From Eutypella sp. D-1 (Eukaryota; Ascomycota; Sordariomycetes; Xylariales; Diatrypaceae), in assembly GCA_023313575.1 (NCBI GenBank), contig JAJTTP010000033.1, positions 124,001-188,000 of the forward strand: a stretch of 64,000 nt of DNA, read 5' to 3'. The first letter of the stretch is position 1. Each line of letters starts with the position of its first letter. The notes beneath the pieces were generated by a model. The model was given only the letters and a program-made list of their open reading frames with translations, did no database searches and was not told the DNA's origin. Both the position numbers and the translations under genes were made by a program. Positions 12,122 through 62,814 of the stretch are shown here, one piece after another.

Positions 12122-12124
<3 letters not shown>

Positions 12125-12157
<33 letters not shown>
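12125..12157. repeat. (GT)n microsatellite
   Basis: About 16 uninterrupted GT dinucleotides. Confidence 0.95.
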
Positions 12158-12158
<1 letters not shown>

Positions 12159-12947: not shown

Positions 12948-12998
12948 TATATATATGTTGTATATATATATATGTTGTATATATATATATGTTGTATA
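12948..12998. repeat. Minisatellite of TATATATATATATGTTG-like units
   Basis: Three near-identical units of alternating TA ending in TGTTG. Confidence 0.85.
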
Positions 12999-30985: not shown

Positions 30986-32437
30986 CTAGTCCTCGCCAAA
31001 GGGATAATTAAACTTCAACAAACCATTCAACCCACCAACCCAGCCATCATCTTCCTCGACACCCCCATCGCGGTGGGGCGCCGGGGAGCGAATAACACAG
31101 GGGACGCCGCCGACCCAAGCGCCGGGGGGGCCAGCCGGCTCGATGACCTCGCCCTCGACGCGGATCTCGGCGCCAGGCAGGACGTCGGCAGCGCGACGCT
31201 TGCCATCGACACTGACTTCCAGCCCGAGGCCGCCGTCGCCGACGCGCTGGTTGCGCGCGCTGATGCGCAGGGTGACGCGGCTGCCGAGCGGGAGGACGAG
31301 GGGGCGGAAACTCAGACTGCGGGCGCAGATCGGCGTGATGAGTAGGGCTTTGACGAGCGGGTGCATGATGCTGCCGCCCGCGGAGAGGGAGTACGCCGTG
31401 CTCCCCGTCGGCGTGCTGATGAGGAGGCCGTCGGCCACTGCTTCCGTGAGGTGGTGGCCGTTGACGAAGACGTCGATGTGTGCGAGGTGCGGGTTCGGGC
31501 CGCGGTGGATCACTAGTTCGTTGACGGCGTGGAAGACGGGGCTGTTACTATCGCTGCCTTTGCCGCTGCTGGTGCTGGTGGCGGGGGATTCGTTCACCTT
31601 GGCCCCCGAGGCATCGTAGACGCCGACCTTGAGCCGATTGCGCAGCAAGATGCGCGCCGAGCGGTTCGTGCCCATGCTCTTCCCGCGGACGCCGCTCCAG
31701 GCATCATTAAGCAAGGGCGTCTCCCCGCCACCGCCACCGCCACCGCCGCCTGCTGCCACGGCGGCTTGCTGGGTATGCGGGCCCTGGAGGTCAGACACGG
31801 AGACGCCGCTGCCGCTCATGTAGACCTCGCGCCAGGCGCGCTTGTACTCGTGGAACTTCCACTCGCCGAGGAAGCCGAGGGTGCCCATGCTGAAGGCCAG
31901 GATGGGCGGCACGAACGCGTGCAGGCTGAAGAGGCTCGCGGCGCGCAGGATGGTGCCGTCGCCGCCGAGCGTGACCACGAGGTCTGTCTTCTCGGGGATC
32001 AGATGGCTGCTAGCCGGGGCGGCGGGACCGTCAGGGTTAGATGATGTGGGGGAGGATGTGGTGGTGGTGGTGTAGATGGGGAAGGGGAGAGATTCATGGA
32101 TGGCCTCAGCGACGCCGCGCTCGAAGATGGGCCGCAAGTTCGGGTACTCGGCGACGATGTGGCGGGCGAACGCGACGGCGGATTCCGTCACGTGCGGGGC
32201 TAGGAGCTTCGGCACGATCAGCACGTTGCGTGGCGGCTCCGGCCACTGCAGCGAGAGCAAGCCCGACGGGTTTTCCTTGTACTGCGGAAGGATCCGGGCC
32301 GGAAGCGATGCCACGTCGAGGAGCTCGTGCCGACGGGCTGTTGTCGTGAAGGCCCGCCGCCTTCTTGCCGGCCGCTGAAGACTGCTCCGATATATGGCCC
32401 CACATGGGCGATAAAGGCTGTCCCACCGGGGTGGCAT
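30986..32437 (-). CDS. pos5: NAD(H) kinase, mitochondrial Pos5 type (483 aa)
   Basis: Single-exon gene for a second NAD kinase. The N-terminus (residues 1-37) is Arg/Ser/Thr-rich and lacks acidic residues apart from one Asp, as in a mitochondrial targeting peptide ([18 protein letters not shown]). The catalytic core has GGDGT (158-162), [11 protein letters not shown], the block [44 protein letters not shown] and [11 protein letters not shown]. An insert of Gly and Ser runs (around residues 230-245 and 285-305) interrupts the fold between conserved blocks and is probably a loop. Yeast Pos5 is the mitochondrial NADH kinase; localisation here is inferred from the presequence. The paralogue at 2577-4389 lacks such a presequence. 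Confidence 0.93.
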
Positions 32438-33528
32438 TACGCCGTTAAACCCTTGCTTACTTTTCTTCTTGTCTACAAAGTCGGCTAAGAGAGGCTCCCT
32501 GCGGTAGCTACTCCTTAAGTGATATCAGACGAGCGACGGAGAAGAAGAAGGTGGCCCGGTCGCGACGACGTGCCATGGGTTAAGCGTATGTCTATGATGC
32601 CAGGAACGCACATTAGTATTTTCCTCACCACATTCAGTCGAAGTCTGGTCCGTTAGATTCTTCATGATTAAAAAGCACGTTTAGACCAAGGGGGATTTCT
32701 AAAACACCTGGGTGAAGTCTCTCTCACCTTAAGGACGTAAAGTACTAAGCTTGTATAGAAAATTCGTAGTATGGAAGCATTCCAGGCATTCTATCCAATA
32801 AGCATTATCTTATCACCGAAGAGATAGTTTACCTTCACATGATGTCAATTCCACAGAGGCTTAGGTACTTATGTATGTACTTAAGTGGGGTATCGGAAAT
32901 GTCGGCGCTAATGTGGCAATTGCATTTGCGGCTGCTTAACTCCGTTAAAAGCTTGTTGCACATCTAGATCCAGCTTTACCTAATGCGGTATAGATAACAG
33001 TCGACCACTTATAAGCAACATGAACCCCGCAATATCCCTGGATAAGGGGTTACATCCATAAATACCTGGGCGCCGTTGCATTTCGAGGTACCTTTTCAGA
33101 AGGTTACCTGTGAAAACCTTAGGTGATGATGTTCCAGACTGATTGATACCTTTCCACTGAATTTCAAAATGATGCGCTTCTCATGACCGTTGACTCAGTC
33201 TCTACATCAAGTTCCGGGGTGACAGCGGCCCTATGTACGTAATATTTGAAAAAAGGATATTCCCAAAGAAAGGTTCGGAATAGACCCCTCTTCAGGTAAA
33301 ATGTCCTTGTGTCTTGTGCAGCTTGTTGTGTAGGATCCTGTATTTATAGTCACCTATGCCCCTCCCCCTTTTCTTCTCGGGATCCTCTTCTAGCTGGCTC
33401 AACCATCTCGAGATTCTCTATAGTGTGTGCCTGTGATTTGACACCCACGTGACTCTCCCTACTGTGACGTTTATAGCAATCTACATATCATTCATTATTT
33501 TCCCCGGTCCAATCTAAAAGCATTTGTC
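32438..33528. promoter_or_regulatory. Divergent promoter region, POS5-type kinase / oxidoreductase
   Basis: 1.1 kb, AT-rich relative to the genes, with no supported coding. Its two ends are the promoters of the flanking genes. Confidence 0.5.
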
Positions 33529-41031: not shown

Positions 41032-44000
41032 CTATTTTCCTACTTTGTGATCGATCCAACTCCACATGCGCTGCACTGATAAGCGATCCAGTGGCTTAAC
41101 ATCTGCCATGGTGCGTGACACGAGCTTCGTGTGACTGAGGTCAAACGTGCAAGCGCTTTGAACGCCTTGCCTCGAGCGTAATTCTTGACCTTGCGCATTG
41201 GCATCCGAGTCTTCTGTATATTTGGCCTTCCAGAACCCGATTAACCCCTGGGATGGATGGCACAGACGTTGTCGTCCACCGCTTAGACTCGATTCCAATT
41301 GCTCAAGCCACCGCTGTGGTGGGACTGTGTCGAACTCTACGCTTCGGGACTCACGAATCCAGCGCAGCATATCATGCCACTTGGGTGTCTTATGAGGGTT
41401 AAGAACGTGGTATACTGGTACGGTCGATGATGTCCTGATATGAGTCGGCGATATGTGCTCGGGTTCATTGGGCAGAATGATTTCAAGAATAGCCGTCACC
41501 GCGAGGTCCACAGGTAGCCAGCTGAGCGGCTCATATCCAAGGTCAGGGAGGCAATGTGCTATCCGTGCCGTGGAAAGCATGAGTGGGTAGGCTTCGCTCT
41601 CATTCCAAACCCCATCCTTGTTACCGCAGAGCTGTCCGACTCGGATGATCGACACGGACCTGTCAGAGCCTTCGGCCTCGTGTGCTGCAGAACAGATCTG
41701 CTCCGCTACCCACTTGGACTGGGCATAACCTAGCGGCGTGGCATCTTGAGGGTTTGATGAGACCGTCTCGGACACGTGCCCGTTCAAAGTGGCCGAGACG
41801 GCTGCTGTTGAGCTGATGAAACAGAAGTGCGCATCTGCCTGCCTGGTGCAATTGATCAGGTTGCGCACCCCGGCGAGGTGGTATTCGAACGATTTTAGTT
41901 GTAGGCTGAAATTTACCGCCCACGCAGCATGAATGACGAGAGTTGCCTCTTCGACGATTTGCTTCATCGTGTCCTGAGACAACCCGAGATTGTCCTCCGA
42001 CAGAACACAAGGTAGACAGATAACACGATGATCGAGTTTGGAGCTCTCGACATGTGCTTGTGGTTCCGCCAGGCCTCGCGCTGTGAGAGCTCGGTCGACA
42101 CGGCCATATGCCATTCGTGAAGATGGAGCTCGTACGAGGCAGTAGATTTTGCCAACCCGTTGATCTCGCAAAAGGGAACTGAGAATATGTGCGCCGAGAG
42201 CCCCGGTCGCACCGGTCAGCACCACTACAACGCCTGTCTTTTCCATAGGCGTCCTGCCTCGTGGTTGAAAGTCGCTATACCTACCGGCAAGGTCACGCAT
42301 CTGGTTCCTTGAACATATGTCGAAGCCAGCATCTTGAATATCGTTGCCCTGACGAAGTCTTACGATATATTTGGCCAGGGCGTCGACGGTGCCAAGATCG
42401 TAGACGATATTGAGTGGCAACGACGGGGAGTCCGCTGGCATCAATGTCCTCTCTATGAACCTGCGTATCTGTATACATGCCATCGAGTCGACGCCTTGTC
42501 GGAATAGATCCTCGTCCTGGTTAATTTGTCTTCCGGTGCATCTGCAGATCTCGTCGGTGATCCTAGATTGGACCTCATCATCTTGAACCTCGGCGTCGCT
42601 GACCGCGCTGTTCGTTCTCGCATAGACGGTCTCAATGATGTCCGCATACCATTCCTGAGACTGCCGGCGCATGATTGTGCCCTTGCTACTTTTCGGTAGA
42701 TATTCCCTCCCCTTCACAATTCTGATGGTTATTAACGAGGTCCGCGATAAGCGAGCATGACCCGGAAATTCGTTGTTGATTTGTTCTATACTCGGCCACA
42801 GCGTCTCGATGACATCTGCGCTCGGGAGAACATCCGGGGAGGCGAATAGCAACGCTCCTGGAAAGTCCCTGCCCGCCCCAAACACGAGCACATCGCACAG
42901 CAGGTTCGTAGAAGCTAAAATTGCCCCCTCCATGGGTGAGGGATCGAACTTCTTACCGTTAGCTAGCGCGATCTGGGAATCTGCCCTGCTGTGGTAGCGC
43001 CACGCATTCGGTATTGTGGGGTGAGCTTCGAACAAGTCCGAGGTCGCATACGAACCGTCCTCGCGATTCGTCTTCGCCAGTACCGGCCAATGGGGCCGGA
43101 TGACGAGCTCCGCCAAGCCGTCCCCTGTAGGCTCGAATGCGAGCAGATCAGGATCATTCGAAGAGCGAAGATACTGCCAATCCTTGTCTACCGCGTAGTC
43201 CCGGTGCGACGACATCAGAAACCCGCACTCGGCGCTGCCCATCCGCGAGACGAGATTGACACCCTTCGCGACTAGCTCATCGCCGACCGTAGCTGGCAAC
43301 GCCGCTCCTCCGACCCCCACGAGATTCATGCTCTTGAGAACCCAAACGCCCTTACCTTCCGCAGCCAGAAATTGGAGCACGTACGGTACCGAGGTGAAAT
43401 ACAACACCGGGACTGGACTACTGCGGCGGGCGTATGCAACCGCGTCTAGCACGCTGCTGGCCGTGATGGGAGCGCGGCCTTCCGGGAAGAGCCAGATCAT
43501 CGCACCGGCTGTCCACGCCCGAAGGCAATCGGCAAGGCCGCCGTGATATAACGGCGTTGTAGTGAACGTAGCGCTCGCAAGTTGCCCGAGCGATAGTCGA
43601 GGCAATGCGCCAACGGCGCTCCAATGGCTCTGCGGGACGGGCTTCGGTAGGCCGCTGGAAGTTCCTGACGTATGATAGAAAAATGCGAGGTCGGAAGAGC
43701 GTAACTCCAACGAATTGTGGTCGAGGCTAGTTAGGCCCGTGCCCGGTTGCTGTCTGTATAGCGGGATGTTCTTAACCTTAATATCATTCCCAAGTTCGAC
43801 AGCCACGCGTCGCCCTGTCTCATCTGCGAAGAGTGTGGTAACACCGCAACTCTTGCAAAGATGCACAATTGCACTCGGGCTCAACTGAGGTCTGTTGAGA
43901 TCAGCAAAGGTACAAATGCCAGAATAAAGCTGAAGGGCTATTGGGAGCAAGCCCTTACGCTACTAAGAGGACAGTGTTACCTGCGCGTATGAGGCCTAAC

Positions 44001-44414
44001 CATGTAATAATAAAGTCGAGACTACTCAAGCACATCAGACCGACTGTTCCAGCCGTGTTATTGTAGTAGGAAGGGGGCCCCGCGAGCGGGGCTAGGACTG
44101 TGGCCGCATGGTCTGACAAGCGCTTGAGCTCTCTATATGTGATCTGATCGGGTCCTGTACGGTTGTCAGTCGCTACACAGTCCTTCCGATCTCCGTGAGA
44201 TGAGTGCGGGTTACTGGCCTCTGTCAACGCTGTCTCGTGGCGAAAAATCGGCAGTTCCGAGCGCCGGATGGTCGGGGAAACCTCGCGCCTGCTCATCTAT
44301 AAGATCCAGAATCGTGTCGGATTGTGTTAATCGCCCTCCAGACACCGACTTCTTCCATCGTGCCGCCTGGTCAAGCGTACACGTAAAGTAGGTCAATCGC
44401 TCATCTTTATCCAT
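41032..44414 (-). CDS. NRPS-like A-T-R carboxylate reductase (about 1076 aa), mycosporine cluster
   Basis: Three-domain enzyme that should activate a carboxylic acid as its adenylate, load it on a phosphopantetheine arm and release it as an aldehyde with NAD(P)H. Exon 3 (43891-41032) and exon 2 (ending 43959) are firm; exon 1 (44414 to about 44229) joins exon 2 (about 44143) by a less certain intron. Adenylation domain: HTSGTSSGLPK (about 197-207), RADSQIALANGKKFDPSPMEG, and Lys527 in PKSSKGTIMRR. Thiolation domain: FRQGVDSMACIQ with the carrier Ser593. Reductase domain: LTGATGALGAHIL (from about 682), ISSTAA, and the catalytic Tyr846/Lys850 in GYAQSKWVAEQ. No condensation domain is present. 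It is divergent to the aldo-keto reductase and near the mycosporine core genes, so a role in reducing the amino-acid carboxyl is likely but inferred. Confidence 0.9.
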
Positions 44415-44944
44415 GTTTGATCAGAGCATCAGCTTTCAGACGAAGCTTTATGATAATATGAATGCCCTATGCTGCGTGGATTCTTCTTATGATATCCTTC
44501 TTTCATTGGACGTCGCTTTCTGGTTATGTCGACTCCGGTTCCGCCTTCGGAGCTCCGCGCCATGTAGAGATAGCTGCACATGATCTAGGCCGCGAGCTTT
44601 GTACCCCGATTTAAATGGTATATGTCGCAACTATGTCGAATGCACCTGATAGCAAGATTGCAAAGCACTCCCAAGCCTCCGTACTTGATACATGTGGCTC
44701 AATATGCAGCTAAGTGTGTCAATGAATCATCACCTTCCCCTTTGCGGCCCGGATCCATATATCTAAGACATCATGCACTCCAAGGCCGAGAAGCGTCGAG
44801 GGCAAGGCCTAATGCAAGCCCAACGTACCGAGGTCCAATCTGAATATTAGGCCATGTACTCCATCTGCTCGCGAACTTCTCAAGACAGTCATACCATCGC
44901 ACAGTCATGCGTAAGTAGTCACCAAAGAAGCCGCATCCTACAAA
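44415..44944. promoter_or_regulatory. Shared divergent promoter, A-T-R reductase / aldo-keto reductase
   Basis: 530 bp between two divergent starts. It contains a GACGTC core (44509-44514, in TTGGACGTCGC) and a palindromic CGG-N4-CCG (44548-44557), the shape of sites bound by Zn2Cys6 regulators. A TTTAAAT stretch near 44610 could be a core element. No factor is proven. Confidence 0.5.
44548..44557. promoter_or_regulatory. Candidate Zn2Cys6 palindrome CGG-N4-CCG
   Basis: CGGAGCTCCG is a perfect inverted repeat inside the shared promoter. Fungal binuclear zinc-cluster factors often bind inverted CGG triplets; spacing 4 is uncommon but known for some. Chance occurrence cannot be excluded. Confidence 0.3.
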
Positions 44945-45851
44945 ATGACGAAAATAACGATTACGGATACACTCTTGCTTTCAAACTCCAGGAAGATCCC
45001 ACAGCTGGGATTTGGCGTCTACCGATCTTCCGTCGATCAGTGCGTGCAGTCATGCCTGACGGCTCTTCAATGCGGCTACCGCCACATCGACACCGCGCAG
45101 TTCTACGGCAATGAGAAGGAAGTCGGCGAGGCTGTGAGGCAGTCTGGGATTTCGCGCAGCGACGTGTTCCTCACGACCAAGATCCTTACCCCGGGAGGCT
45201 CCGTCGAGGAGGATTATCAGAAATGCGTCGAAAGCGTCAACAAGCTGGACGCGTCGGACGACGACAGCGGATATGTGGATCTGTTCCTCATCCACTCTCC
45301 TAACTGCGGGAAGGAGAAGCGGATACAGCTGTGGAGAGCCCTGGAGCGACTGTATCAGGAAGGCAGGGCGAGGAGTATCGGCGTGAGCAACTTTGGCCGC
45401 AGTCATATTGAGGAGTTGCGGGAGATTGCCAAAGTCTGGCCCCCACACGTCAACCAGATCGAGGTATGTCATGCCCTATACTTGCCTGTCCAGACCACCA
45501 AGTAACAGGAGACCGCAGCTCCACCCGTGGAATCAACAGAAGGGCATCGTGCAGTATTGTCACCAGAATGGAACCGCAATAGAAGCATATTGCCCGCTCG
45601 TGAGGAACACCAAGGGAGATGACGACACCCTCGTCGGCATAGCGAAGAAACACCGCGTATCCCCAGCTCAGATCCTGATAAGGTACAGCCTGGAGAAGGG
45701 ATGGATTCCGCTGCCGAAAAGCGACGATCCATCTAGGATCGCTGCAAATGCTGATGTTTTCCACTTCAGCCTCGACAAGGAAGATATGACTACATTAGAT
45801 GGCCTGGACCAGGGTCGTGACGGTGCTATAGTCCAAGCAGTAGATGACTGA
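44945..45851 (+). CDS. Aldo-keto reductase (283 aa), mycosporine cluster
   Basis: NADPH-dependent carbonyl reductase. Exons are 44945-45463 and 45519-45851. The AKR catalytic tetrad is complete: Asp49 and Tyr54 (YRHIDTAQFYGNEKEVG), Lys79 (FLTTKIL) and His117 (LFLIHSPN). Further family marks are IGVSNFGRSHIEEL, QIELHPWNQQ (restored by splicing) and a cofactor-binding end, IPLPKSDDPSRIAANADVF. The size is typical of short fungal AKRs. It shares a 530 bp divergent promoter with the A-T-R reductase. The simplest reading is that it reduces the aldehyde made by that enzyme to an alcohol, protecting the cell and fixing the amino-alcohol side chain. This pairing is inference from context. Confidence 0.93.
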
Positions 45852-46109
45852 GATGAGTTGGTACATGCGAAAGGCATAGGGGCGCAAGTTGCTCGTCTCG
45901 GGTTGCGGTTGTGGCACGGGACCTCACGCAAATGCAATTGGACATCGTGCAGAACTTCAATCACGCACTGCGCGTTCGCATTATCGTACTTGTGTAATGC
46001 GGCTTACAAGTAGAACCAAAAGACTAGAATGGAGCTCATCATAAACGTATGTTGCCCTCATAAGGACACTGCATCTAGTTCATACCCCCCCTCCCGCGAT
46101 ATCCCCGGA

Positions 46110-46507
46110 TCAGAACCTGTCCTTGTCCTTGACGGGCAACTCGCTTCCCGTCTGTTTCTTGTACTGATCGCGGATGAAGTCCGAGATCTGCTCGTCCTTC
46201 GCCTGCTCGACGGCACTCTCATTGCTCTGGTCTCCCTGTCCAAGGACGTGCTCCTGGACGAAGTCCACACCTGTACACGAGGCCCACAGGCGTTAGTAGT
46301 GCTAGAACATCGCTAGATAGGTGGGCTTGGTAGCAACTAACCTTTATCAAGAGCATCTTCGTTCTTCTCGCTCTCCTTGCCACCGCCGGCCATGCCGTGG
46401 AGCTTGTCCATGAGACCTCCGCTCTCTTTGTTCTGGTTCTGGCTCTGCTCTTGCTGGTTCTTCTCGCCGTCCTTGGAACCGCCGGTGAGCTTATTGACGA
46501 AATCCAT
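46110..46507 (-). CDS. Small hydrophilic conserved fungal protein, stress-type (108 aa)
   Basis: Exons are 46507-46342 and 46270-46110. The protein starts MDFVNKLTGGSKDGEKN, has a Gln/Asn/Lys-rich stretch, then GGLMDKLHGMAGGGKESEKNEDALDKGVDFVQEHVLGQGDQS split over several short amphipathic segments, and ends QISDFIRDQYKKQTGSELPV. No Cys, no membrane segment and no signal peptide are present. Similar short proteins occur in many ascomycetes, where databases often carry the label DNA-damage-responsive protein; I know of no proven biochemical role. It lies between the aldo-keto reductase and O-methyltransferase genes. It may be a stress protein co-regulated with the sunscreen genes or merely a passenger. 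Confidence 0.78.
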
Positions 46508-47338
46508 CTTGATCAGCCTTGGGTGTTCTTAAGATAGTGATTGAAATGCGTAGAGTTTCTACTTGTAGGTGATGAGAGCTCAATAACTCTATACTGTAGA
46601 ATGCTATTCAGGATGTGCTGTGTAGTAGATGTGATAATGGTGAAGGAAGGCTCCAGCTTCTAGATATGGGAGTAGGGAATGGAAGTGATTAGTGTAAAAT
46701 CCGGATCACCCCGCAAGAGAACGGCACTCACCACAAGTAACACCAAGTCTAGCTGACACCAGGGAAGGAAAGAGCTGAAACAACAACGTGATGTCATTGC
46801 TAGGCGTATCTTGGCTTGATTGAGGGCGAATCACTGCTATCCGATCGTCGAAACCCTCCTATCATTCGTGGCACCAGAGTACGTAATTGGTTACACCTAC
46901 AGCACTAAAACCGGGAAATTGGTACACTCACCAATATTCCACGTCTTGGCTGCATTAATGCAAGATCTGGATCCTGAATTCCCAGGCCCGCCCAAATCGT
47001 TTGAGCATACCATATATCACTGCACCTCTGACTGTACATGGTGCCTGCTGGCTGACAACACCCACAGTCTAACGGTTTCCTCGGATGATAGATTCACTGT
47101 CGTGCGTATCCATTAGATCACAAACGGCATGCGACAAGGCCAGACAAGTCGATGAATAGTACATTGAACAATGTCAATTGGCCATAGCATAGGTTGCCTT
47201 CCTTATGATTCATGCAGGCCATGTACATTTCCGTCCTCCGAATAGCCCTCTTTCAAGAAAACCAGGAGCGACTCGATCACCCTCCTATATTTCGGCTTCC
47301 AACTACTGCTGGACAATAAAGTCCTCAGTGGCGATGCA
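46508..47338. other. Intergenic region, no gene supported
   Basis: 830 bp between the small-protein start and the end of the O-methyltransferase. An open frame at 46820-47116 begins with TTG, lacks a domain and was not accepted. The left part is the promoter of the small protein. Confidence 0.45.
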
Positions 47339-48322
47339 TTAACTCTCAATGCCAACACATTTGGTTATTTCCAAAGCGTCCTAACCAGGTCAGCCAACGT
47401 GTCGCAACAGTAAACGGGTAATATATGGAGAAAGTAGACTTACAGGCACGCCACTGGGTTCCCAGCCTTCCACAAACTTGCTCTCGTAGACAAGATTTGG
47501 ATTGCCCCTCGGCTCTGATCCTTGACATTCGTCATACCGGCGTTTCTTTTGTTCGACGGTGCTCCTAACGTATTCAAGGTACGGAGGGTTTCCTGGCTTG
47601 ACAACTGCCAGAGAAGACGTTAGTTTGCCAGTGCCAAACTTCATTCTTCTTTCCGTGAGAGGATCTCACCGTTATCTGCTACGTATATTGAGCCCTGGCC
47701 GACCAGTCCAAGCTCCTCGCACAGCTTGAGGTCTCTTGTGTATGCTGGCTTGTAATGGTCTAAGAACAAGAGATCGATGCGCCTCAACTGTCCTGCATCA
47801 TAGAGACGTTTGAGGGAGTCGGCACTGGCACCAACGACGACGGTCACTACATCGTGCAAGCCAGCTAGATCAACCAGTGATGAGATGACAGCGGCGAACT
47901 CAGGATTCTGTTCCAGACTGAAGTATTGCCCACCACCTGCATCCCTCAATGCCGCAGCAAACGCTATGGCGGAATAGCCGACGTAGCCACCCAGCTCGAC
48001 AACTACTCGCGGCTTCTCTCTTTTGATCAGGTCGACAACGGTGCTGGACTTGTATTCGCCAATGTTCATCAAGTACTTCTTCTTTCGACCGTATTCGTCA
48101 ATTGCGTCTAGCACCCTCTGAGGGTTCCCGCGCATCTGGTCTAAGTCGGGATGGTTGTACATAAAGTGTAGGAGGGCAATCTCCCGGCCATCGTCGAACT
48201 GGAACCCATAGTTAGCGATATTTTCACCTCCAAAACTCAAAATAGGCGATGGTGCACGAGGTACTGACGTAGACGGTCTCCTGAGGCTGATAGGCCTCGC
48301 CGTGGAACTTCTCCTGGTCCAT
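47339..48322 (-). CDS. COMT-type SAM-dependent O-methyltransferase (261 aa), mycosporine cluster
   Basis: Predicted to methylate desmethyl-4-deoxygadusol to 4-deoxygadusol. Exons are 48322-48269, 48198-47670, 47604-47444 and 47380-47339; the first intron carries a perfect GCTAAC branch site, and splicing joins the leader MDQEKFHGEAYQPQETVY to FDDGREIALL. The SAM-binding motif is VVVELGGYVGYS (83-94). Catechol-O-methyltransferase marks follow: LLFLDHYKPAY (metal-ligand Asp) and, across intron 2, ADNVVKPGNPPYL (metal-ligand Asp-Asn). The end, DALEITKCVGIES, is typical of fungal COMT proteins. The nearest gene, 787 bp away and divergent, is the cyclase whose product it should use. The cyanobacterial counterpart is also a SAM O-methyltransferase, but the COMT type is what is seen here. 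Confidence 0.92.
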
Positions 48323-49108
48323 CTTGCCTAGGAAGGATGAGCAGTTTCTCTTCCTTAGGTTCCGTATGGGCTAGACACGACGTGTATGCCTTGCGGTGTA
48401 TGCGTGAAATTCGGGTACTGTATAGCTCTGCCCTGGTACATTAGTCATATTATTGATAGCAAAGGCAGCCTTTAGAGGAAATCGATCCAGTCGCTCCCAC
48501 ACGTGGCTGGCGAGAATGCGATGTGTCACTACTTTAAGGGTCTTGAGGTCATCGACTTTTCCATCAACCCTCAGCCAATGTATCTTATCCGAGCAGCGTA
48601 TCCATCACCATGGAGATGAAACCCAGGCCGCCAGGGATCAAACGAGCCTTATGCCCCGAGGATCTGGATCAATCTCCTGCAGTATGGGCATTAGCCCGAG
48701 TTTTATCGTATGTTTGATGCACGCATCTCTGCGGGTCAGGAACCACACCAAGTCTAATTCACCTTGGCTGTGTTGTCTCATACTTAGACTGATGCAGACG
48801 CATGCGGGCCAGCGTCGTAGACATAGACGCGGTATGAGATGAGATATCAACATGAACAGACCGACAGTTGAGCTCGGCAGGGGAAATGCACTGGATCAAT
48901 GGCTGCGAGTCATGACGATATGACGATTCCATTGACGTCTGCGAATAGTTGTTTTCGTAAGTTACCACGGAGTTCTAACCCGTGTGGCGGCCTTCATATC
49001 GGAATAGCTGGGAGATTTAAGGCTTCCACTACTCCTCAGCTCGATATTCGCCTTCGAGGCGCACCTCTATCTTTCATACATTTTACATCTAGCCATCTCG
49101 AACTGAAA
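48323..49108. promoter_or_regulatory. Shared divergent promoter, O-methyltransferase / DDGS
   Basis: 786 bp between the two divergent core genes. It holds TGACGTCT (48933-48940), one base from the palindromic CRE bound by ATF/CREB-type bZIP factors, and TGACGA in two nearby places (48912-48925). A TTTAAGG stretch near 49016 could be the core promoter of the cyclase gene. No coding is supported. Confidence 0.5.
48933..48940. promoter_or_regulatory. CRE-like site TGACGTCT
   Basis: It shares the GACGTC core with the site at 44509-44514 in the other divergent promoter of the cluster. Fungal AtfA-type factors bind TGACGT cores in stress and conidiation genes. Function here is inferred. Confidence 0.35.
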
Positions 49109-50715
49109 ATGTCTGACCTCAAGGCCAACGTCTCCGAGACCCAGCATGGGTTTCACGTAGAGGGCTATGAGAAAATTGAGTACGACTTCACCTTCGTGGA
49201 TGGCGTCTTCGATGAATCCAACAGTAACCTCGCGGACTGCTACACGAAATGGGGGCGGGTGCTGGCCGTGATGGACAAGAACGTCTACGACATTTACGGA
49301 CAGAAGATGGAGCAGTACTTTAGACACTACAAGCTGGACCTGAAGGTTCACAAGACCTCCATCGGCGAAAAGGCCAAGACGATCGACACGTTCCTTAGCA
49401 TCTGCGACTCTATGACGGAGTTCGGTATCATCCGCAAAGTGGGTTGCTGCGCAGACAAACCGTATAGACCACATATTAAGCAATTGTAGGAACCTGTTTT
49501 GGTCGTAGGAGGCGGTCTCGTCACCGACGTAGCCGGGTACGTATGACTGGTCTCACCAAGTTTGACCCCCGTCCGTAGCCGCAACTGACGACGATTAGAT
49601 TCGCATGTGCGGCCTACCGCCGCAACACCAACTTTATCCGCGTACCGACGACCGTCATCGGATTAATCGATGCTAGCGTCAGCATCAAAGTTGCGGTAAA
49701 TTACGGGCGATACAAGAACAGACTCGGGGCCTACCATGCGCCCATGCACACCTTCCTCGACTTCAGCCTGCTGCAAACCCTACCTAGGGCGCATGTCCGC
49801 AACGGGTTCGCGGAGCTCATCAAGATTTCCTCATGCTCCCACTTGGAGGTTTTCGACCTGCTAGACAAGTTCTGCGAGCAGCTCATCGATACCAAGTTCG
49901 GCCGGACAGACGGGACTCTCGATGAGGTCCGCAAGGCGGCCGATATCGTAAGTAGCCGGTAAACCCTGATGAACACCACTCCGCGACTAAGTGATTCTCG
50001 TAGATCACGCGCGAAGGCATCTACGAGATGCTGAAACTCGAATCGCCCAACCTGCACGAGATCGGTCTGGACAGGGTGATTGCCTACGGGCATACGTGAG
50101 TGACACCGAGATATCCTACAGTAGCAGAATCCAATCAAATGTGCAGTGCTAACTCTTTCACGAAGCTGGTCACCCCTTCACGAGCTAATCCCCGAGACAC
50201 CGCTCCGCCACGGTCATGCAATCTCGATCGACATGGCTTACTCGGCCACGCTAGCCAACCAGAGAGGACTGCTATCCGACGAGGAGCACAGCCGACTCCT
50301 CACGCTATTCTCGAGGGCCGGCCTATCGATCGACCACCCGCAATTCGACGACGAAGTGCTCGACAAGGGAACGGCAGCTATTCTCAAGACCCGAGACGGC
50401 CTACTCCGGCTCGCAGTGCCTAACCCTCTGGGGAAGTGTACCTTCCTCAACGACGTTTCTGCGCAGGAGTTGCGAGATGCCCTGCGAAGACATAAGGAGC
50501 TTGCTCGGGCGTACCCGCGGGAGGGTGCTGGGTTGGAGGCGTACGTCGATAGTAGCGACACTGGCTACGCAGATAATGAGAGTGGACAGAGTACCACGGA
50601 GACGCAATCTGGAAGCACAATGGGCGATGTTGCCGGCGGGATCGGCAATCGCGCTGGCGGCCTCATTAAAGGTGCCATTGGCAAGCTTTCTGACGGCGTT
50701 AAGGTCCAGGCCTGA
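49109..50715 (+). CDS. Desmethyl-4-deoxygadusol synthase-type sugar phosphate cyclase (455 aa)
   Basis: Should cyclise sedoheptulose 7-phosphate to desmethyl-4-deoxygadusol, the mycosporine core. Exons are 49109-49438, 49490-49536, 49599-49947, 50004-50095 and 50166-50715, all in frame. NAD-binding motif [12 protein letters not shown] (115-126), then [12 protein letters not shown] and [20 protein letters not shown]. Metal ligands match dehydroquinate synthase: Glu198 (GFAELIK), His272 (AYGHTWSP) and His288 (PLRHGHA). Ala269 and Thr348 sit 79 residues apart, the pair I recall as marking DDGS (Ala268/Thr347 in the Anabaena enzyme), where valiolone synthases have Asp and His. A Gly-rich tail (about 400-455) is extra to the catalytic fold. 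The ATG at 49109 was chosen; the frame stays open upstream, but that sequence looks like leader. Confidence 0.94.
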
Positions 50716-51547
50716 TGTCGGGTGGTGTAGAGTCTCCCATGTACGTCGCGTTTTATCGCGCTGAATTTTCATATACTTAGAGCGGTTAAGGTGTTAAGGG
50801 TGCTATGTAGCTTTGAGGCGTACTGCAAATAAAAGTCGATCTGTGGTCAATTGAGCCACCCCATGCCTGAGTAGAACGAACAGCGACAGATCAAGCCGCC
50901 ATCTGGGCTTGTCTTTTGCAATGCGAATCCAAAAGGTTCATACTTGTATGCTGTGTGAAGTGAGCTAATTCCACTCCCATGTAGCCGTCATTAGACAATT
51001 TTTTAGTAGCTCGTTCGGTGGCCTGCCCGCTAATTTAACCCCTGAAATGGCAAGGGTGGTGTCGTATGCTTGGTAGAAGCTGACGATGCCCATGAACCTA
51101 AGTATTTGATAGGAATAGTCTCGTACAGTTTGATGTTCGTTTTTTCTTTTCTTTAACTCGCTGTATATTGGAAGTAATCGGAGCCGGTTTTGGAGTCTGA
51201 GACATTCTTGTTGTCGTTGACGTAGTCTATTCATGCAGCCGCCAAAGCGCCAGTCGGTTTCCTGGAATGTAACATGTTCTGCAAGAAGAAAATAGCGAGG
51301 CATGAAAGGCATGAATCATTGACATGACTGAGCAGGTTGGCATTGCCACAGACCTAGCCCTGGAACACGCGAAATCATCTGCCTATAGGCAAACTAGCCA
51401 GCTCTCAATATTAGTCACTCTCTACAGCCTGGCTCGACAATCCGCCATTAAACGATACTCCACGACATTGATCCTGGTGTTGATATTTCGAGCTACGCTG
51501 AGCAAGTATTCAAGAGGACGCTTGTCACCTCCCCCATCAGCGCAGTC
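50716..51547. other. Intergenic region between cyclase and ATP-grasp genes
   Basis: 830 bp. A 115-codon open frame on the - strand (51312-50965) has a normal ATG (starts MPFMPRYFLLAEH) but no domain or homologue I recognise; it could be a small gene, at low confidence. Otherwise the promoter of the ATP-grasp gene is expected here. Confidence 0.4.
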
Positions 51548-53092
51548 ATGTTAACACGGCCTCTGGATATCGATTGCAGATCATTGGGGCTTGTCGTGAC
51601 CAGTATTATCATTTTGCCATGTTCTCTCCTTGTGGTCCTTCTTATTTACATCACTAGAGCGATTTCCTCCGGCGTGGGGCTCACGGATGAACACAAGCTT
51701 CGGGATAGGAGGCGGAACCACCGGGATCGGGATGACCAAAGATATGTTATCCTCGTCACAGGAGTTGGCATGGCTAAAGGTCTGGCACTCGCCCGAGCAT
51801 TCCATATACGCGGAAACCGTGTAGTCGGCGCAGATTTCGAGAGTCAACACATCCCGTGTTCTGGGCGTTACTCCAAAGCCCTCTCGACATTTCACCCATT
51901 GGTTAGGCCCGCTGACAGCGGGCAGACTGAGGCATACGTGGCAAGCCTCATTGAGATTGTAGAGACGGAGCATGTTGACCTATGGGTATCGTGTTCGGGA
52001 GTTGGCAGCGCCATCGAGGATGCCCGCGCCAAGGAAGCCATCGAACAGCGGGGTCATTGCACGTGCATACAATTCGACGTCGAGACTACTTCGAGACTCC
52101 ACGAGAAGGACTCGTTCATGCGGGAGGCGAAGAGGTTGGGGCTTCCCGCCCCAGAGACACACGACATAAAGTCTGTCGACGAAGCCCTGAGAATATTGTC
52201 CGACTCTGAATCGGCGGATCCAGACCGGAAGTTCGTCTTGAAGCCGGTCGGAGTCGATGATGTTCATCGTGGCGATATGACGCTCTTCCCTCTCAAATCG
52301 CATTCCAGAACTAGGAAACATCTATCCCGTCTCCCAATATCACCTGCTACGCCTTGGATCATGCAAGAGTTCATCCCGGGCGGGGAGGAATACTGCACCC
52401 ACGCGTTAGTCGTGCGCGGCGAGGTGAGGTGCTTCGTGGCGTGCGCTAGTGCGGAGCTGCTGATGCATTACCGCGCGCTACCGTCGACTTCTGCGTTATC
52501 AATGGCGTTTCTGAATTTCACGCGCGAGTTCGTCGCCCGGTCGCATAATCCCGAAACGTGGACGGGTCACCTCAGCTTCGACTTTATGGTTCGGGACTGC
52601 GAGGCAAAAGAGACTGGCATTGATAAGAAGATCTACGCCATCGAATGCAATCCCCGAGTGCATACAGCCGTCGTACTTTTTGACCTATTCGGTCCGGACA
52701 CCGCGGCTTTGGTGGATGCCTACATTTCTGCACTGCGACCTGTTCGTAATGGCCTTGATGCGACGATAAATTGTGCTGGGGGACACCTAATAGTCCCAAC
52801 CCAGGGAACGCCGCCTAGATACTGGCTGGGGCATGACCTAGTGACACTCGTCCTGCATCGAGCATGTCTCTTTGCGATCGGCCGGGCAAGCTTGGGTGAC
52901 CTGATCGGCGGGTGTGCAACATTCGTCGCCCACGTATACACGATGAAAGAAGGTACCTTTGCTGCGTGGGATCCGTGGCCGGCCGTGATCCTCTATCACG
53001 TGTACTGGCCAATGACCATACTGTCAGTCTGGTGGAAAGGAGGACGTTGGAGCAGACTCAATGTCAGCACGACAAAGATGTTTATCCTGTAA
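51548..53092 (+). CDS. ATP-grasp amino-acid ligase with N-terminal membrane segment (514 aa), mycosporine cluster
   Basis: Single-exon gene. It resembles the MysC-type ATP-grasp ligase that activates 4-deoxygadusol and joins it to an amino acid (glycine in cyanobacteria). Residues about 13-36 form one strong hydrophobic segment (LGLVVTSIIILPCSLLVVLL), followed by a basic stretch (RRRNHRDRDD), so the enzyme is probably membrane-anchored with the catalytic part in the cytosol. A pre-ATP-grasp domain starts YVILVTGVGMAKGLALARAF; the ATP-grasp domain shows FVLKPVGVDD (Lys232), WIMQEFIPGGEEY and the metal-binding YAIECNPRVHTAV (Glu366, Asn368). The C-terminal 130 residues include a hydrophobic patch (WPAVILYHVYWPMTILSVWW). 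Position downstream of the cyclase supports the role; the amino acid used is unknown. Confidence 0.9.
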   Translation: MLTRPLDIDCRSLGLVVTSIIILPCSLLVVLLIYITRAISSGVGLTDEHKLRDRRRNHRDRDDQRYVILVTGVGMAKGLALARAFHIRGNRVVGADFESQHIPCSGRYSKALSTFHPLVRPADSGQTEAYVASLIEIVETEHVDLWVSCSGVGSAIEDARAKEAIEQRGHCTCIQFDVETTSRLHEKDSFMREAKRLGLPAPETHDIKSVDEALRILSDSESADPDRKFVLKPVGVDDVHRGDMTLFPLKSHSRTRKHLSRLPISPATPWIMQEFIPGGEEYCTHALVVRGEVRCFVACASAELLMHYRALPSTSALSMAFLNFTREFVARSHNPETWTGHLSFDFMVRDCEAKETGIDKKIYAIECNPRVHTAVVLFDLFGPDTAALVDAYISALRPVRNGLDATINCAGGHLIVPTQGTPPRYWLGHDLVTLVLHRACLFAIGRASLGDLIGGCATFVAHVYTMKEGTFAAWDPWPAVILYHVYWPMTILSVWWKGGRWSRLNVSTTKMFIL

Positions 53093-58831: not shown

Positions 58832-60483
58832 TGCGATGTGTGGAGTACGAGGGCCATTCTAACACCGGGAATAGACCCTTGGGATATATTAAATGGTATT
58901 GGAAATCACCGTTTTCAAGGACACCAGTCAAGATATAGACTTTCAACAAGTGATCTGGTTGGTAGAGATTACCGGGACGATAGTCGACTTCTTCGCAATC
59001 CGCCTTTGATGGGGAACCCTCTACAAATAGTATATAAAGGGCATGGGCCACTGCGAGGAAGTCCGTGCAGAGGAAGAGGGTATCCAAGCCCTGAGTGGGG
59101 ACCGTCACAGGCCGAGGCCTTTATTTCTATATGGCAGTCAATCCAGGAACGAGTTATCAAGAATCCACGGCCAGGAGTCCAATACCATTTGGCGATGGAC
59201 ACTTCAGGAACGCCTTGTCTGACGCAGAGACGAGATACAACACTGGGGAGCGGGAGACCTTGGGAGTGGTGCGAGCGTTGGCAGAATGTCGATGGTTGCT
59301 GATTCCTTGGCCGCATCCCGTGATACTTTATTGCGACCATGCTAATCCTCAAGACGTTCAGCAACGACAATACAAACAATGGACGTATCGCAACCTGGCT
59401 GGAACGCCTGGCAATCAGGGTCAATACGCACCAAGCACCCGGTCGCCTCGCGCTTTGGCCGCATCGATGCCCGGATCTCTGCTATAAACTTGGGCGGGAT
59501 GTACAGGGCCTGCTTGTTGCGGCGCTCTTGCTCGGCTGCAGCTGTAGTCACAGCTGTCACAGTGGTCGTTATGACCGTGGTCCAGCAACAGCATCAGTAG
59601 GAATAATCACAGACTGCTGCGTTCCCTGGCAACTCCCTTGAAAAACGGATTGGGAGACGCCGAGAAGAAACTCACGCAGTATACAACAAAGCTTCATGTC
59701 TTGGTATGGTCTTGGGCAGGAGAGAGAGGGTGCTCGAGTCTCAGACGCGACTCGAGGCTAAGGTTGAGGACTATCGAAAGCAGCTGCTGCAGGCGGAGAT
59801 TAAGCAAAAACATCAGATTTTGCGGGAGCTCGATAACAGGCGCAAAGTGTTCACCAACCAAGAAGAATGTAATCTTAGAGTTGCCGAGGCCGACAAGCAC
59901 CAGCAGCCCAAGCCCCAGCCTTGGCCGCAACTGGAGCAACAGCAAATGGTGCCAGTGGTGAAGCAGGAGGGGTAGCGGCAGCAAGAAGTCTGAACCTACA
60001 AGTGTCTTCTTTTGCTGTCGTGTGCTGCGACGCCTTCGTTACGGGTATCGTGATGTTGGCGTTGTAGATGTCTTATGGCATGCTGTGCTTGTCCTCCCTC
60101 ATCTTAGGTATTTTTTATCCTTGAGCTTGTAATGCAATTTGGTGGGAATTCTGATACTACTAATTGTTACTTGTGGCACGCTTACTTGTAATCATATCTT
60201 TTACACCCCACCAGCGGACTATTTCCCCCTTAACGAGCTGGGGACATGCTTCTGTATGTGTCACCTACTATATATAGCACGCGCATATAGCGTTGCGTCG
60301 TTATCACATATGGCGTGAAAATAGGGCAGTCACGTGTGAGTAGATAACGTGATCTCAGCTGATGGGGCTATGATTACTACGGCCGCTGGTAGCGAGTAGC
60401 CGCCGAATAAAACCATGGAGATTTATGCACGGTAGCTATGTGATCAATTACATAATTCCACTTCAAGACGGATTTCATCCTAT
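58832..60483. other. Intergenic region holding a decayed retroelement and a short coiled-coil frame
   Basis: 1.65 kb. A retroelement fragment (59085-59460) is listed separately. An 89-codon frame at 59706-59975 (starts at an alternative codon; Gln/Glu/Lys-rich coiled coil, e.g. EDYRKQLLQAEIKQKHQILR) may be part of the same relic or chance. 60000-60483 contains the promoter of the HET gene. Confidence 0.5.
59085..59460 (+). mobile_element. Decayed Ty3/Gypsy-like retrotransposon fragment (RT C-terminus / RNase H)
   Basis: Three pieces in three frames align in order with a Gypsy RT-RNase H region. First, about 59092-59212: EWGPSQAEAFISIWQSI and NPRPGVQYHLAMDTSGT. Second, about 59206-59340: LSDAETRYNTGERETLGVV and RALAECRWLLIPWPHPVIL ending YCDH. 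Third, 59342-59415: ILKTFSNDNTNNGRIATWLERL. The expected stretch between DTSGT and LSDAETRY is missing, and a frameshift separates the second and third pieces. No LTRs, integrase or protease were seen nearby, so this is an inactive remnant. Confidence 0.7.
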
Positions 60484-62814
60484 ATGACACCCAACATGTC
60501 TTGTGCCGCTGCGACAGGCGACTCCCGCGATCTACTTGAGGATGAAATGACACATGAGGCCGCTCTGACCTCCCCGCATGCGACCGGGGCTCCATTCACG
60601 GTCTCCGACTCCACGGAACGTGCGTTAAACATCGCACTTGAGCTATTAATCGACCAAGATGAGGAACCTGTCGAGTGGTATATGCGCTGTCTTCATCGCC
60701 TCTTTATCCTCCTGGACTTGGCGGGACACTATTCCTCAAACAGGGATTATGACTTCCTAGAGAGTCTCTCCCCCGGACAAGAACATGCAACAGCACTGCT
60801 CGAAGAGTGGTGGACTAAAACGGATGTGCTTACTTCCAAAGTCAAGAAATGTGTGTTTGGGTTGGTCCTAGCATCTCAGGCGCCTGAAACCTATCGCGTA
60901 GAATTCGAAAGGCTCGAGGCTCTGACGCCTCGTGTGGATATCCCCTTACTGCATGAAGCACACCAAGAGCTACAAAGCTGTTGGCATGATAGGCCCTATA
61001 TATCAGGCCTAAGGGATTCCTGGAGGGCCTTTATTGACTGCTCAACTTACCATCGGCGCATGTTTGCTCTTTTCTATGGGGAGCTATCCCCTGAGGATGA
61101 CGTCGACAGCTCAACGTGGGATTTTATGAGGACAGATGGCCGACGTGACGCAGGCGGCGAAGCAGCTATCGAGAGAATTGGTCGCGCATGGCTCAGACAG
61201 TTTTCTGAAAGCCCAAACCGCGAAACCGGTTCTGCCGTTGGCTTCCATTGGGACAAGAAAAGGTTGCAGATCCGGGATTGCCATATTGGGATCCCAGTAA
61301 ATCTGATTCCATGCCCTTGGCTACATAAGAAAGACGGCAAAGACCAACACCAATCTCCCTTGCCCTATTACCTTTGGGATATCAAAGCAAGACGTACCGT
61401 GGAGACAGCCGAGCTAGACGCTTCGGCTGTGAGATATGACATAGTAAGTCACACGTGGGGTCGGTGGAGGAAGCCTGGCGCAGGGGCTCGTGTGTCTGGG
61501 GTTCCCTGGCTGGTTCCAGAGAATACAGTGTTTGATGTCAACGCCCTTGGTACTTTGCTGGAGCAGGCTGGCTTCCACGAGGAATATGTCTGGCTAGACC
61601 TTCTCTGCATCCCGCAGGAAAGGTCAGATACTGAGCAGGTCCGTATTTGCCAAGTCGAGCTCGCGAGACAGGCCCAGATCTTTTATCGCGCTCAGACCGC
61701 CGTCGCATGGCTTCATGATGTCTCAGACTGGCGAGGTGCTGAAGCCGCAATCGCGTGGCTCGGCTTGGACTACCTGAGGACGAATACACCATCGGACATG
61801 GTAGAGAGAAGGGATATGATGGGGTCCATCATGAATGAATTGGAAGCAATATCGACAGACCATCACAGCTTTCCCGTGCGGGGAGGGTCAACTAGCTGGT
61901 TGTCATCACTGTGGACATTGCAGGAGTCGATGATCCGTCAGGACATGTTTCTAGCGAGCCGTTCATGGGAGCCTCTCCTGGCCGGGAACAATCTTCTTAT
62001 CACCCTAGACTACCTGTCTGCACTGGTCAGACTATCTCAGATCTCTCCAAACTGTCCAGTCGGAGTCAAGGAGTTCTGGGCCTTGTTGATGACGGAGAGA
62101 CTGGAGAGTCTATATCAGCCGAACAGACTCACACCGCTGATTCTGGGACAGAGACGAGCCTGCACGCATTCGAGAGCTGTAGCGATAATGGCCGTCACAG
62201 GGGCGACCGACTGGTTTCTCGGGAAAACCGTAGAGCAGTTTCGACAGGACGAAGAGGTTCCCGATGTATACCCGATAGAGTTCCTCAAAGAGGTGTGTGA
62301 AAAGTCTGGCGCCGCCTTCTTCATGTCGTATCTTCACCCTTCCACCGCAGACGACGATCGGAACGCCCGGGGGAGCATGCTTCCATTCGCAGCAGATTTA
62401 CATGATAGCCACAACTTGAAGATTGCAAGCCAGCTAGATTGCGTAGTCGAAGACCATGAGACTGTCAGGGAATGGGTGATCCAGGAGGATTTTAGCGTGT
62501 TGCTGCCAAGAGTTTGCATAGTGGCATCCAAAATGGAGGTCCTGGAAACAGCACGAGTGCGCGTGGTCGTTAACGAAGTCCAAATAACTCTGCAAGAGTA
62601 CGTTGCCCTTTTCGCCGGCGAGACCTACGCGGTGTGTACCCAGGTCCCAAAGGCATTTCTTTCAGGTATACGCGGCATCATACTCAGCCGCCCAGATGGG
62701 CAGCATATGTTTAGAAAGCTCGCCGCGTTTGCCTCGACCCGGGTTGTGGGAGAGCATAAATATTGGGAGTCTAAACTCCCAGAAGCGAGATGGGTCAATT
62801 GGCTCGTTTCTTAG
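60484..62814 (+). CDS. HET-domain (heterokaryon incompatibility-like) protein (776 aa)
   Basis: Single-exon gene. The HET domain begins at about residue 318 with YDIVSHTWG and continues through EYVWLDLLCIPQE (about 369-381) and ICQVELARQAQIFYRAQTAVAWLHDV, then SSLWTLQESMIRQDMFLASRSWEPL, the usual block order of the family. Residues 1-300 are a helical region without a named domain. No STAND/NLR partner domain, WD repeats or TIR domain follows. HET proteins trigger regulated cell death on fusion of unlike fungal individuals or in related defence; whether this one does is unknown. It sits next to retroelement debris and short repeats, typical of fast-evolving regions. The start could also be the ATG at 60496. 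Confidence 0.88.
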   Translation: MTPNMSCAAATGDSRDLLEDEMTHEAALTSPHATGAPFTVSDSTERALNIALELLIDQDEEPVEWYMRCLHRLFILLDLAGHYSSNRDYDFLESLSPGQEHATALLEEWWTKTDVLTSKVKKCVFGLVLASQAPETYRVEFERLEALTPRVDIPLLHEAHQELQSCWHDRPYISGLRDSWRAFIDCSTYHRRMFALFYGELSPEDDVDSSTWDFMRTDGRRDAGGEAAIERIGRAWLRQFSESPNRETGSAVGFHWDKKRLQIRDCHIGIPVNLIPCPWLHKKDGKDQHQSPLPYYLWDIKARRTVETAELDASAVRYDIVSHTWGRWRKPGAGARVSGVPWLVPENTVFDVNALGTLLEQAGFHEEYVWLDLLCIPQERSDTEQVRICQVELARQAQIFYRAQTAVAWLHDVSDWRGAEAAIAWLGLDYLRTNTPSDMVERRDMMGSIMNELEAISTDHHSFPVRGGSTSWLSSLWTLQESMIRQDMFLASRSWEPLLAGNNLLITLDYLSALVRLSQISPNCPVGVKEFWALLMTERLESLYQPNRLTPLILGQRRACTHSRAVAIMAVTGATDWFLGKTVEQFRQDEEVPDVYPIEFLKEVCEKSGAAFFMSYLHPSTADDDRNARGSMLPFAADLHDSHNLKIASQLDCVVEDHETVREWVIQEDFSVLLPRVCIVASKMEVLETARVRVVVNEVQITLQEYVALFAGETYAVCTQVPKAFLSGIRGIILSRPDGQHMFRKLAAFASTRVVGEHKYWESKLPEARWVNWLVS

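What the first reader, a model, noticed from the sequence alone, without database searches (positions are those of the whole stretch)
41032..53092. Putative fungal mycosporine (UV-sunscreen) biosynthetic gene cluster
The sequence shows a DDGS-type sugar phosphate cyclase (Glu198/His272/His288 metal site, Ala269/Thr348), a SAM O-methyltransferase and a MysC-like ATP-grasp ligase within 6 kb, with an NRPS-like enzyme and an aldo-keto reductase beside them. In cyanobacteria the same trio plus an NRPS-like gene makes shinorine-type compounds. Fungi have long been known to make mycosporines, but complete ascomycete clusters of this gene content are, as far as I know, not well described.
Basis: partly seen in the sequence, partly recalled or inferred. 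Interest (0 to 1): 0.92.

Follow-up and report, generated by a model that had tools for sequence, protein, structure and literature searches.

The report
Ascomycete sunscreen cluster with carboxylate reductase
This fungal gene cluster carries the three genes known to make mycosporine sunscreens plus a linked reductase pair that may turn the attached amino acid into an alcohol.

Summary
The cluster is real. A 2-desmethyl-4-deoxygadusol synthase (DDGS), an O-methyltransferase and a MysC-type ATP-grasp ligase lie within 6 kb of a Xylariales genome. The DDGS call is firm: 496 bits to solved structure 5tpr, 237 to the valiolone synthase entry. A ligase homologue lies within 2.6 kb of DDGS in 80 of 80 bacterial loci; a methyltransferase homologue lies directly downstream in 64 (69 have a match). 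It looks like a carboxylate reductase. Of its 120 listed relatives, 35 share a contig length with a listed DDGS or ligase, and all 35 fall in one clade with the window's copy. Best reading: the trio makes an oxo-mycosporine; A-T-R plus the neighbouring aldo-keto reductase reduce the side-chain carboxylate to an alcohol. The three-gene core is proven in Phaffia (2023), and NRPS-like mycosporine clusters were noted in Hypoxylaceae (2021). What I add is the clade-level linkage, the A-domain evidence and the proposed reductive step. Against it: Phaffia's three genes alone gave mycosporine-glutaminol in yeast, and Fusarium has A-T-R relatives with no DDGS visible.

The parts
41032..44414 (-). NRPS-like adenylation-carrier-reductase (A-T-R) protein, probable carboxylate reductase; main exon 43891-41032 with stop, intron 43958-43892, first part from ATG 44414; a further small intron near 44.2 kb unresolved
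   Evidence: Pfam AMP-binding, AMP-binding_C_3, PP-binding, NAD_binding_4, all above cut-off; gene model; motifs present: HTSGTSSGLPKP, PLYHGG, LPKSSKGT, GVDS, TGATGALG, GYAQSK; closest relative 94% identical in an unnamed ENA entry, next 55% in Diatrype stigma
44945..45851 (+). Aldo-keto reductase, 283 aa, exons 44945-45463 and 45519-45851
   Evidence: Pfam Aldo_ket_red; NCBIfam DkgA 213 bits, below its cut-off of 425; segments IDTAQFYGNE, LTTKI and LFLIHSPN present (that they hold the catalytic residues is recalled); nearest paralogue in the genome 45% identical
46110..46507 (-). Small two-exon gene for a charged, Gly-rich protein of about 108 aa between the aldo-keto reductase and the methyltransferase; membership uncertain
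   Evidence: Open frames with a plausible intron; no Pfam match at E 0.01
47339..48322 (-). O-methyltransferase, exons 48322-48269, 48198-47670, 47604-47444, 47380-47339
   Evidence: Pfam Methyltransf_3 and Methyltransf_24; splice model with GT-AG introns, not checked against close homologues; no other match in the genome
49109..50715 (+). DDGS, 2-desmethyl-4-deoxygadusol synthase, 455 aa, five exons: 49109-49438, 49490-49536, 49599-49947, 50004-50095, 50166-50715
   Evidence: 496 bits to 5tpr, 237 to 4p53, 120 or less to dehydroquinate synthases; below the aroB cut-off, 188 of 305 bits; 82% identical to a Xylariales homologue; splice model agrees with 13 homologues apart from the variable tail; the only other DHQ_synthase family match in the genome lies in a 1608-aa frame, probably AROM
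51548..53092 (+). MysC-type ATP-grasp ligase, 514 aa, single exon, N-terminal hydrophobic helix at about residues 5-44
   Evidence: Only match in the genome; AlphaFold model matches ATP-grasp enzymes; homologue 27-33% identical within 2.6 kb of DDGS in 80 of 80 bacterial loci

Best explanation
A reductive mycosporine cluster. DDGS cyclises sedoheptulose 7-phosphate to 2-desmethyl-4-deoxygadusol, the methyltransferase makes 4-deoxygadusol, and the ATP-grasp ligase joins an amino acid to give an oxo-mycosporine absorbing near 310 nm (these functions are shown for homologues elsewhere, not here). Then, by inference, the A-T-R protein adenylates the free carboxylate of the mycosporine-amino acid, loads it on its carrier and releases it as an aldehyde with a nicotinamide cofactor, and the aldo-keto reductase reduces the aldehyde to the alcohol, giving a mycosporine with an amino-alcohol side chain such as glutaminol or serinol. 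My confidence that the trio makes a mycosporine is about 0.95; the figure given is for the whole statement.
For: DDGS identity. Trio conserved: in 80 bacterial DDGS loci the ligase matches in 80, the methyltransferase in 69 (64 of them on the same strand within 500 bases downstream of DDGS), the aldo-keto reductase in 0, and the NRPS-like protein in 3 at 23-25% over the reductase part. The reductive pair thus appears to be an addition on the fungal side. A-T-R linkage: 35 of the 120 listed A-T-R relatives share their longest-contig length with a listed DDGS (29) or ligase (28), 22 with both; locus tags are close in Pestalotiopsis fici (PFICI_12759, 12761, 12763), Apiospora marii (PG985_009726, 009727, 009729), Xylaria curta (NUW58_g783, g784) and Pyricularia pennisetigena (PpBr36_09129, 09130), and the length 19,050 bases recurs for all three genes. 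All 35 fall in one clade of 50 with the window's protein, support 0.999; 0 of the other 71 ingroup sequences are linked. A domain: the position of the substrate-amino Asp is His in 121 of 123 aligned sequences, the other 2 gapped; 5 of 6 A domains taken from this genome's amino-acid-type hits have Asp there. TIGR01733 scores 44-60 bits in five relatives against a cut-off of 317.4, while five domains of this genome exceed it. Reductase domain: Pfam NAD_binding_4 129 bits against a cut-off of 20; best solved relative 8aep; TIGR01746 168 bits, below its own cut-off of 213.
Against: Phaffia DDGS, OMT and ATPG alone gave mycosporine-glutaminol in S. cerevisiae (identified by HPLC co-migration in the section read), and the authors have the ligase attach glutaminol directly (PMC10057719); so a dedicated reductase may not be needed, at least there. 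A-T-R relatives occur in 45 Fusarium entries of the 120 listed, none sharing a contig length with a listed DDGS or ligase, and only three alignment columns separate the linked clade from the rest by an 85% criterion, so the substrate may not be specific to mycosporines. The linked clade also largely follows fungal taxonomy. Conservation of the aldo-keto reductase in relatives' clusters could not be tested. No expression or product data exist here.
Confidence: 0.5

Rival explanations
1. The trio makes a mycosporine, but the A-T-R protein and aldo-keto reductase serve another carboxylic acid (aryl, polyketide or unknown) and are only neighbours.
For: Relatives occur in Fusarium (including an entry named nrps11) without a DDGS in the visible lists; two of the three nearest paralogues in the genome, L009 and L010, share a PLFH pocket motif; fungal A-T-R enzymes with known substrates include aryl-acid and aliphatic-acid reductases (PMC9605436, passages).
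Against: Close locus tags in Pestalotiopsis, Apiospora, Xylaria and Pyricularia and 35 linked relatives of 120. No polyketide synthase was recognised in the 21 of 23 window frames of 220 aa or more that were scanned.
Confidence: 0.25
2. The A-T-R protein and aldo-keto reductase reduce free glutamine or serine to the amino alcohol, which the ATP-grasp ligase then attaches to 4-deoxygadusol.
For: Fits the Phaffia scheme, in which the ligase is said to incorporate glutaminol (PMC10057719, section 2.3).
Against: The A domain lacks the Asp that binds a free alpha-amino group and scores far below the amino-acid A-domain cut-off.
Confidence: 0.15
3. The NRPS-like protein adds a second amino acid to give a shinorine-type imino-mycosporine.
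For: Same gene class name as in the cyanobacterial cluster.
Against: The C-terminal domain is a reductase and no thioesterase is among the Pfam matches; the A domain is not of the amino-acid type. PMC10057719 (introduction passage) says the fungal cluster yields only aminocyclohexenones.
Confidence: 0.06

Closest known systems
Phaffia rhodozyma MYC cluster (DDGS-OMT-ATPG), PMC10057719
   Same: Same three core enzymes, clustered; deletion and yeast expression prove the pathway there.
   Different: Three genes in 7.9 kb, no A-T-R or aldo-keto reductase reported in the parts read; a basidiomycete, with DDGS rather than the methyltransferase facing away from the other two.
NRPS-like 'myc' clusters of Hypoxylaceae, PMC8403587
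   Same: Ascomycete NRPS-like clusters assigned there to unidentified mycosporine-like compounds; Hypoxylon and Annulohypoxylon proteins are among my linked relatives.
   Different: Named there from homology to a bacterial cluster; in the passages read no role for a reductase in mycosporine synthesis was proposed and no gene list was seen.
Bacterial mysABC-type loci (actinobacteria, one Melainabacteria record)
   Same: DDGS 50-58% identical, with ligase homologue (80 of 80) and methyltransferase homologue directly downstream (64 of 80).
   Different: No aldo-keto reductase match and no convincing A-T-R gene. Cyanobacterial shinorine clusters with an A-T-TE NRPS were not among the loci fetched; that architecture is recalled.
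Fungal carboxylate reductases (A-T-R), PMC9605436
   Same: Same domain order; PFICI_12763, one of my linked relatives (P0036), is listed there among thirteen P. fici A-T-R enzymes for which no earlier study was reported.
   Different: The characterised ones act on amino acids, aminoadipate or aryl and aliphatic acids; which of the paper's clades holds PFICI_12763 was not visible in the passages seen.

Membership tests
DDGS (2-desmethyl-4-deoxygadusol synthase) | Closer to characterised DDGS than to EEVS or DHQS | tested here: met
   495.6 bits to 5tpr, 237.3 to 4p53, 120.1 or less to DHQS. That 5tpr is the Anabaena DDGS and 4p53 a valiolone synthase is recalled; the table names them 3-dehydroquinate synthase and Cyclase.
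DDGS (2-desmethyl-4-deoxygadusol synthase) | Metal ligands Glu and two His; Ala and Thr where 4p53 has Asp and His | tested here: met
   E198, H272, H288, A269, T348; alignments; 80 of 80, and 79 of 80 for Thr, in bacterial relatives. That Ala and Thr are diagnostic is recalled.
DDGS (2-desmethyl-4-deoxygadusol synthase) | Converts sedoheptulose 7-phosphate to desmethyl-4-deoxygadusol | not testable with these tools
   Needs an enzyme assay
Mycosporine cluster (core trio) | DDGS, O-methyltransferase and ATP-grasp ligase adjacent | tested here: met
   Window 47.3-53.1 kb; conserved neighbourhood in bacteria
Mycosporine cluster (core trio) | Ligase has ATP-grasp fold | tested here: met
   Foldseek best matches 4wd3 (amino acid ligase) and 2pn1, E 3.5e-11 and 5.1e-11, query TM-scores 0.38 and 0.41; Pfam alone missed it for the window's protein
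Mycosporine cluster (core trio) | Makes a compound absorbing near 310 nm | not testable with these tools
   No culture or expression data
Shinorine-type cluster with MysE-like NRPS | A-T-TE NRPS-like protein with amino-acid A domain (definition recalled) | tested here: not met
   A-T-R, His in place of Asp
Fungal A-T-R carboxylate reductase | Adenylation, carrier and NAD-binding reductase domains with their motifs | tested here: met
   the N-terminal exon junction is unresolved
Fungal A-T-R carboxylate reductase | Reduces a carboxylic acid to an aldehyde | not testable with these tools
   Needs an enzyme assay; substrate unknown

The most novel reading that the evidence does not exclude
A dedicated lineage of fungal carboxylate reductases works on the finished chromophore: it adenylates the carboxylate of a mycosporine-amino acid, carries the sunscreen on a phosphopantetheine arm and releases it as an aldehyde that a partner aldo-keto reductase turns into the amino alcohol. 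This would be the enzyme for amino-alcohol mycosporines of these ascomycetes, acting after rather than before ligation.
Probability: 0.4. Interest if true: 0.65.

Novelty: new variant of a known kind. Interest (0 to 1): 0.52.

Why it matters
Fungal mycosporines are reported with amino-alcohol side chains such as glutaminol and its glucoside (PMC10057719 and PMC3083659, passages), yet in the papers seen the origin of that alcohol is left open; the Phaffia scheme starts from glutaminol. A conserved A-T-R gene and a neighbouring aldo-keto reductase give a concrete, testable enzyme pair. If true, it would also give a substrate to a group of fungal carboxylate reductases for which I saw none reported, and an enzymatic route to UV filters without the carboxylate charge.

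Tried and rejected
Valiolone synthase or dehydroquinate synthase identity for the cyclase: rejected, although public records label homologues that way. Pfam for the ligase: no match above cut-off; phmmer and a profile against PDB sequences found only weak hits, mostly dehydrogenases; the fold comparison settled it. AlphaFold of the NRPS-like A domain: pLDDT 66.2, residues 68-126 and others under 50; not used for a fold search. First exon junction of the NRPS-like gene: 71 GT-AG or GC-AG combinations keep the frame open, none decisive. A membrane anchor as a fungal novelty of the ligase: dropped, since a hydrophobic stretch precedes the conserved part in 43 of 43 aligned fungal proteins and also in the open frame of 68 of 80 bacterial loci (the bacterial start codons were not determined). 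Specificity-changing columns between linked and unlinked A-T-R sequences: only three. A hypergeometric value for the clade concentration was computed but is not relied on, because relatives are not independent. A glycosyltransferase for glucosylated mycosporines: none recognised beside the cluster in the frames scanned; the only related hit is a cell-wall glucanosyltransferase domain at 23.4 kb. A-domain controls: of the eight loci, six were aligned (L096 and L100 were not taken); five have Asp, L097 has Gly; L098 and L099 are below the TIGR01733 cut-off; L008 was misplaced by the motif search and left out.
Full report
What is there. The window is part of contig C27 of an unnamed 48.5 Mb fungal genome in 72 contigs. 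Best named relatives of the cluster proteins are mostly Xylariales (placement partly recalled); the NRPS-like protein groups with that of Diatrype stigma (support 1.0) and the ligase is closest among named fungi to Monosporascus, which suggests Diatrypaceae (recalled). Between 41.0 and 53.1 kb lie an A-T-R NRPS-like gene (-), an aldo-keto reductase (+), a small gene of unknown kind (-), an O-methyltransferase (-), DDGS (+) and an ATP-grasp ligase (+). Flanking genes look unrelated: a NUDIX gene from 53.46 kb and a ubiquitin-conjugating domain near 36 kb.

The cyclase. The five-exon model gives 455 aa that align with 13 fungal homologues at 72-82% identity, apart from a variable tail. Against solved structures it scores 496 bits with 5tpr, 237 with the valiolone synthase entry 4p53, and 120 or less with dehydroquinate synthases (the enzyme identity of 5tpr and 4p53 is recalled). 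It falls below the aroB cut-off, 188 of 305 bits. At positions 269 and 348 it has Ala and Thr like 5tpr, where 4p53 has Asp and His (alignments). Ala is found in 80 of 80 and Thr in 79 of 80 bacterial relatives.

The trio as a unit. One scan with two peptide patterns from the DDGS alignment returned 80 bacterial loci, the best 80 of 97 confirmed, actinobacterial except for one Melainabacteria record; no shinorine-type cyanobacterial locus was among them. tblastn with the window's proteins finds the ligase in 80 of 80 (27-33% identity, 0.1-2.5 kb from DDGS), the methyltransferase in 69 of 80 (64 on the same strand within 500 bases downstream of DDGS, one 1.8 kb downstream, four about 4.5 kb away on the other strand), the aldo-keto reductase in 0 of 80 and the NRPS-like protein in 3 of 80 at 23-25% identity over the reductase part. 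In this genome the ligase and the methyltransferase have no second match, and the DHQ_synthase family only one other, in a 1608-residue frame that is probably the AROM gene. The ligase escapes Pfam, but its model matches ATP-grasp enzymes, best an L-amino acid ligase, with modest TM-scores.

The NRPS-like protein. Its domains are adenylation, carrier and NAD-binding reductase; motifs for each are present. The first exon junction is not settled. The protein search gave 956 relatives, of which 120 are visible; likewise 120 of 3346 for DDGS and 120 of 1568 for the ligase. A shared contig does not by itself mean adjacency, but close locus tags in four named species and a 19,050-base length found for all three genes point to it. 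In a FastTree tree of 121 ingroup and 2 outgroup sequences the 35 linked proteins and the window's lie in one clade of 50 (support 0.999); none of the other 71 is linked. The remaining 15 members of the clade are the window's own protein and 14 whose partners are not visible in the capped lists. The clade largely follows fungal taxonomy, so linkage may have been lost elsewhere rather than gained here; 45 Fusarium entries, none linked, lie outside it.

Substrate reasoning. In amino-acid A domains an Asp binds the substrate amino group (recalled from the PheA structure). Aligned to amino-acid-type A domains of the same genome, this position is Asp in 5 of 6 controls and His in the window's protein; it is His in 121 of 123 sequences of the tree alignment, gapped in 2. 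The amino-acid A-domain model TIGR01733 gives 44-60 bits in five relatives (cut-off 317.4) and was not listed for the window's A-domain piece, whereas five domains of this genome exceed the cut-off. Long matches to paralogues in the genome are 26-33% identical. So a free amino acid is an unlikely substrate, and a mycosporine-amino acid, whose nitrogen is part of the chromophore, is a natural candidate in this neighbourhood. This last step is inference; nothing in the pocket separates the linked clade from the unlinked ones, which counts against a mycosporine-only specificity.

Literature. The Phaffia trio is proven by deletion and yeast expression; there the ligase is said to add glutaminol, and three genes sufficed for a product identified by HPLC co-migration (PMC10057719: abstract, sections 2.1 and 2.3, found passages). 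That counts against a need for the reductase pair. The Phaffia cluster was reported in 2016 as hitherto unknown (PMC5103461, passages). [quoted passage not shown] Colletotrichum is said to make mycosporine although no cluster was found in the genomes of that work (PMC4974774, passages). Fungal carboxylate reductases were sorted into seven clades, two of them without a known member; PFICI_12763 is among the enzymes listed (PMC9605436, passages). Fusarium NRPS11 has no known product in the table seen (PMC3694855, passages); PMC6480918 (passages) names none. Nine paper searches were made, eight on mycosporines and one on NRPS11; in the listings and passages seen, none proposes a reductase for the amino-alcohol side chain. 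The library holds open-licence papers only.

Verdict. Shown: gene content, domain identity, motifs, conserved linkage of the A-T-R gene, the altered A-domain position. Inferred: the product, the substrate of the A-T-R protein, the order of steps and the partnership with the aldo-keto reductase, whose conservation in other clusters I could not test.

Noticed in passing
G000 contig C27:120013-122478, upstream of window base 1: Another open frame of 1020 aa with an amino-acid-type A domain (TIGR01733, 292 bits, below cut-off) followed by weak similarity to the carrier-reductase part, possibly an amino-acid reductase, about 43 kb from the cluster.
   Followed up: partly
   Followed up: partly
46110-46507 (-): Small two-exon gene for a charged Gly-rich protein inside the cluster, no Pfam match.
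   Followed up: partly
51548-51680 (+) and L013-L092: The ATP-grasp ligase has a strong N-terminal hydrophobic helix in 43 of 43 aligned fungal proteins, and a hydrophobic stretch also precedes the aligned part in 68 of 80 bacterial frames: the ligase may sit at a membrane.
   Followed up: partly
3001-4515 (-) and 30989-32524 (-): Two separate frames with NAD kinase domains lie in the same window.
   Followed up: no
12001-14000: A stretch of low GC (0.43) with strong GC skew (0.22); other 2-kb bins range from 0.47 to 0.58.
   Followed up: no
60436-62814 (+): Frame of 792 aa with a heterokaryon incompatibility (HET) domain.
   Followed up: no
[quoted passage not shown] one is even named chitin synthase.
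   Followed up: partly
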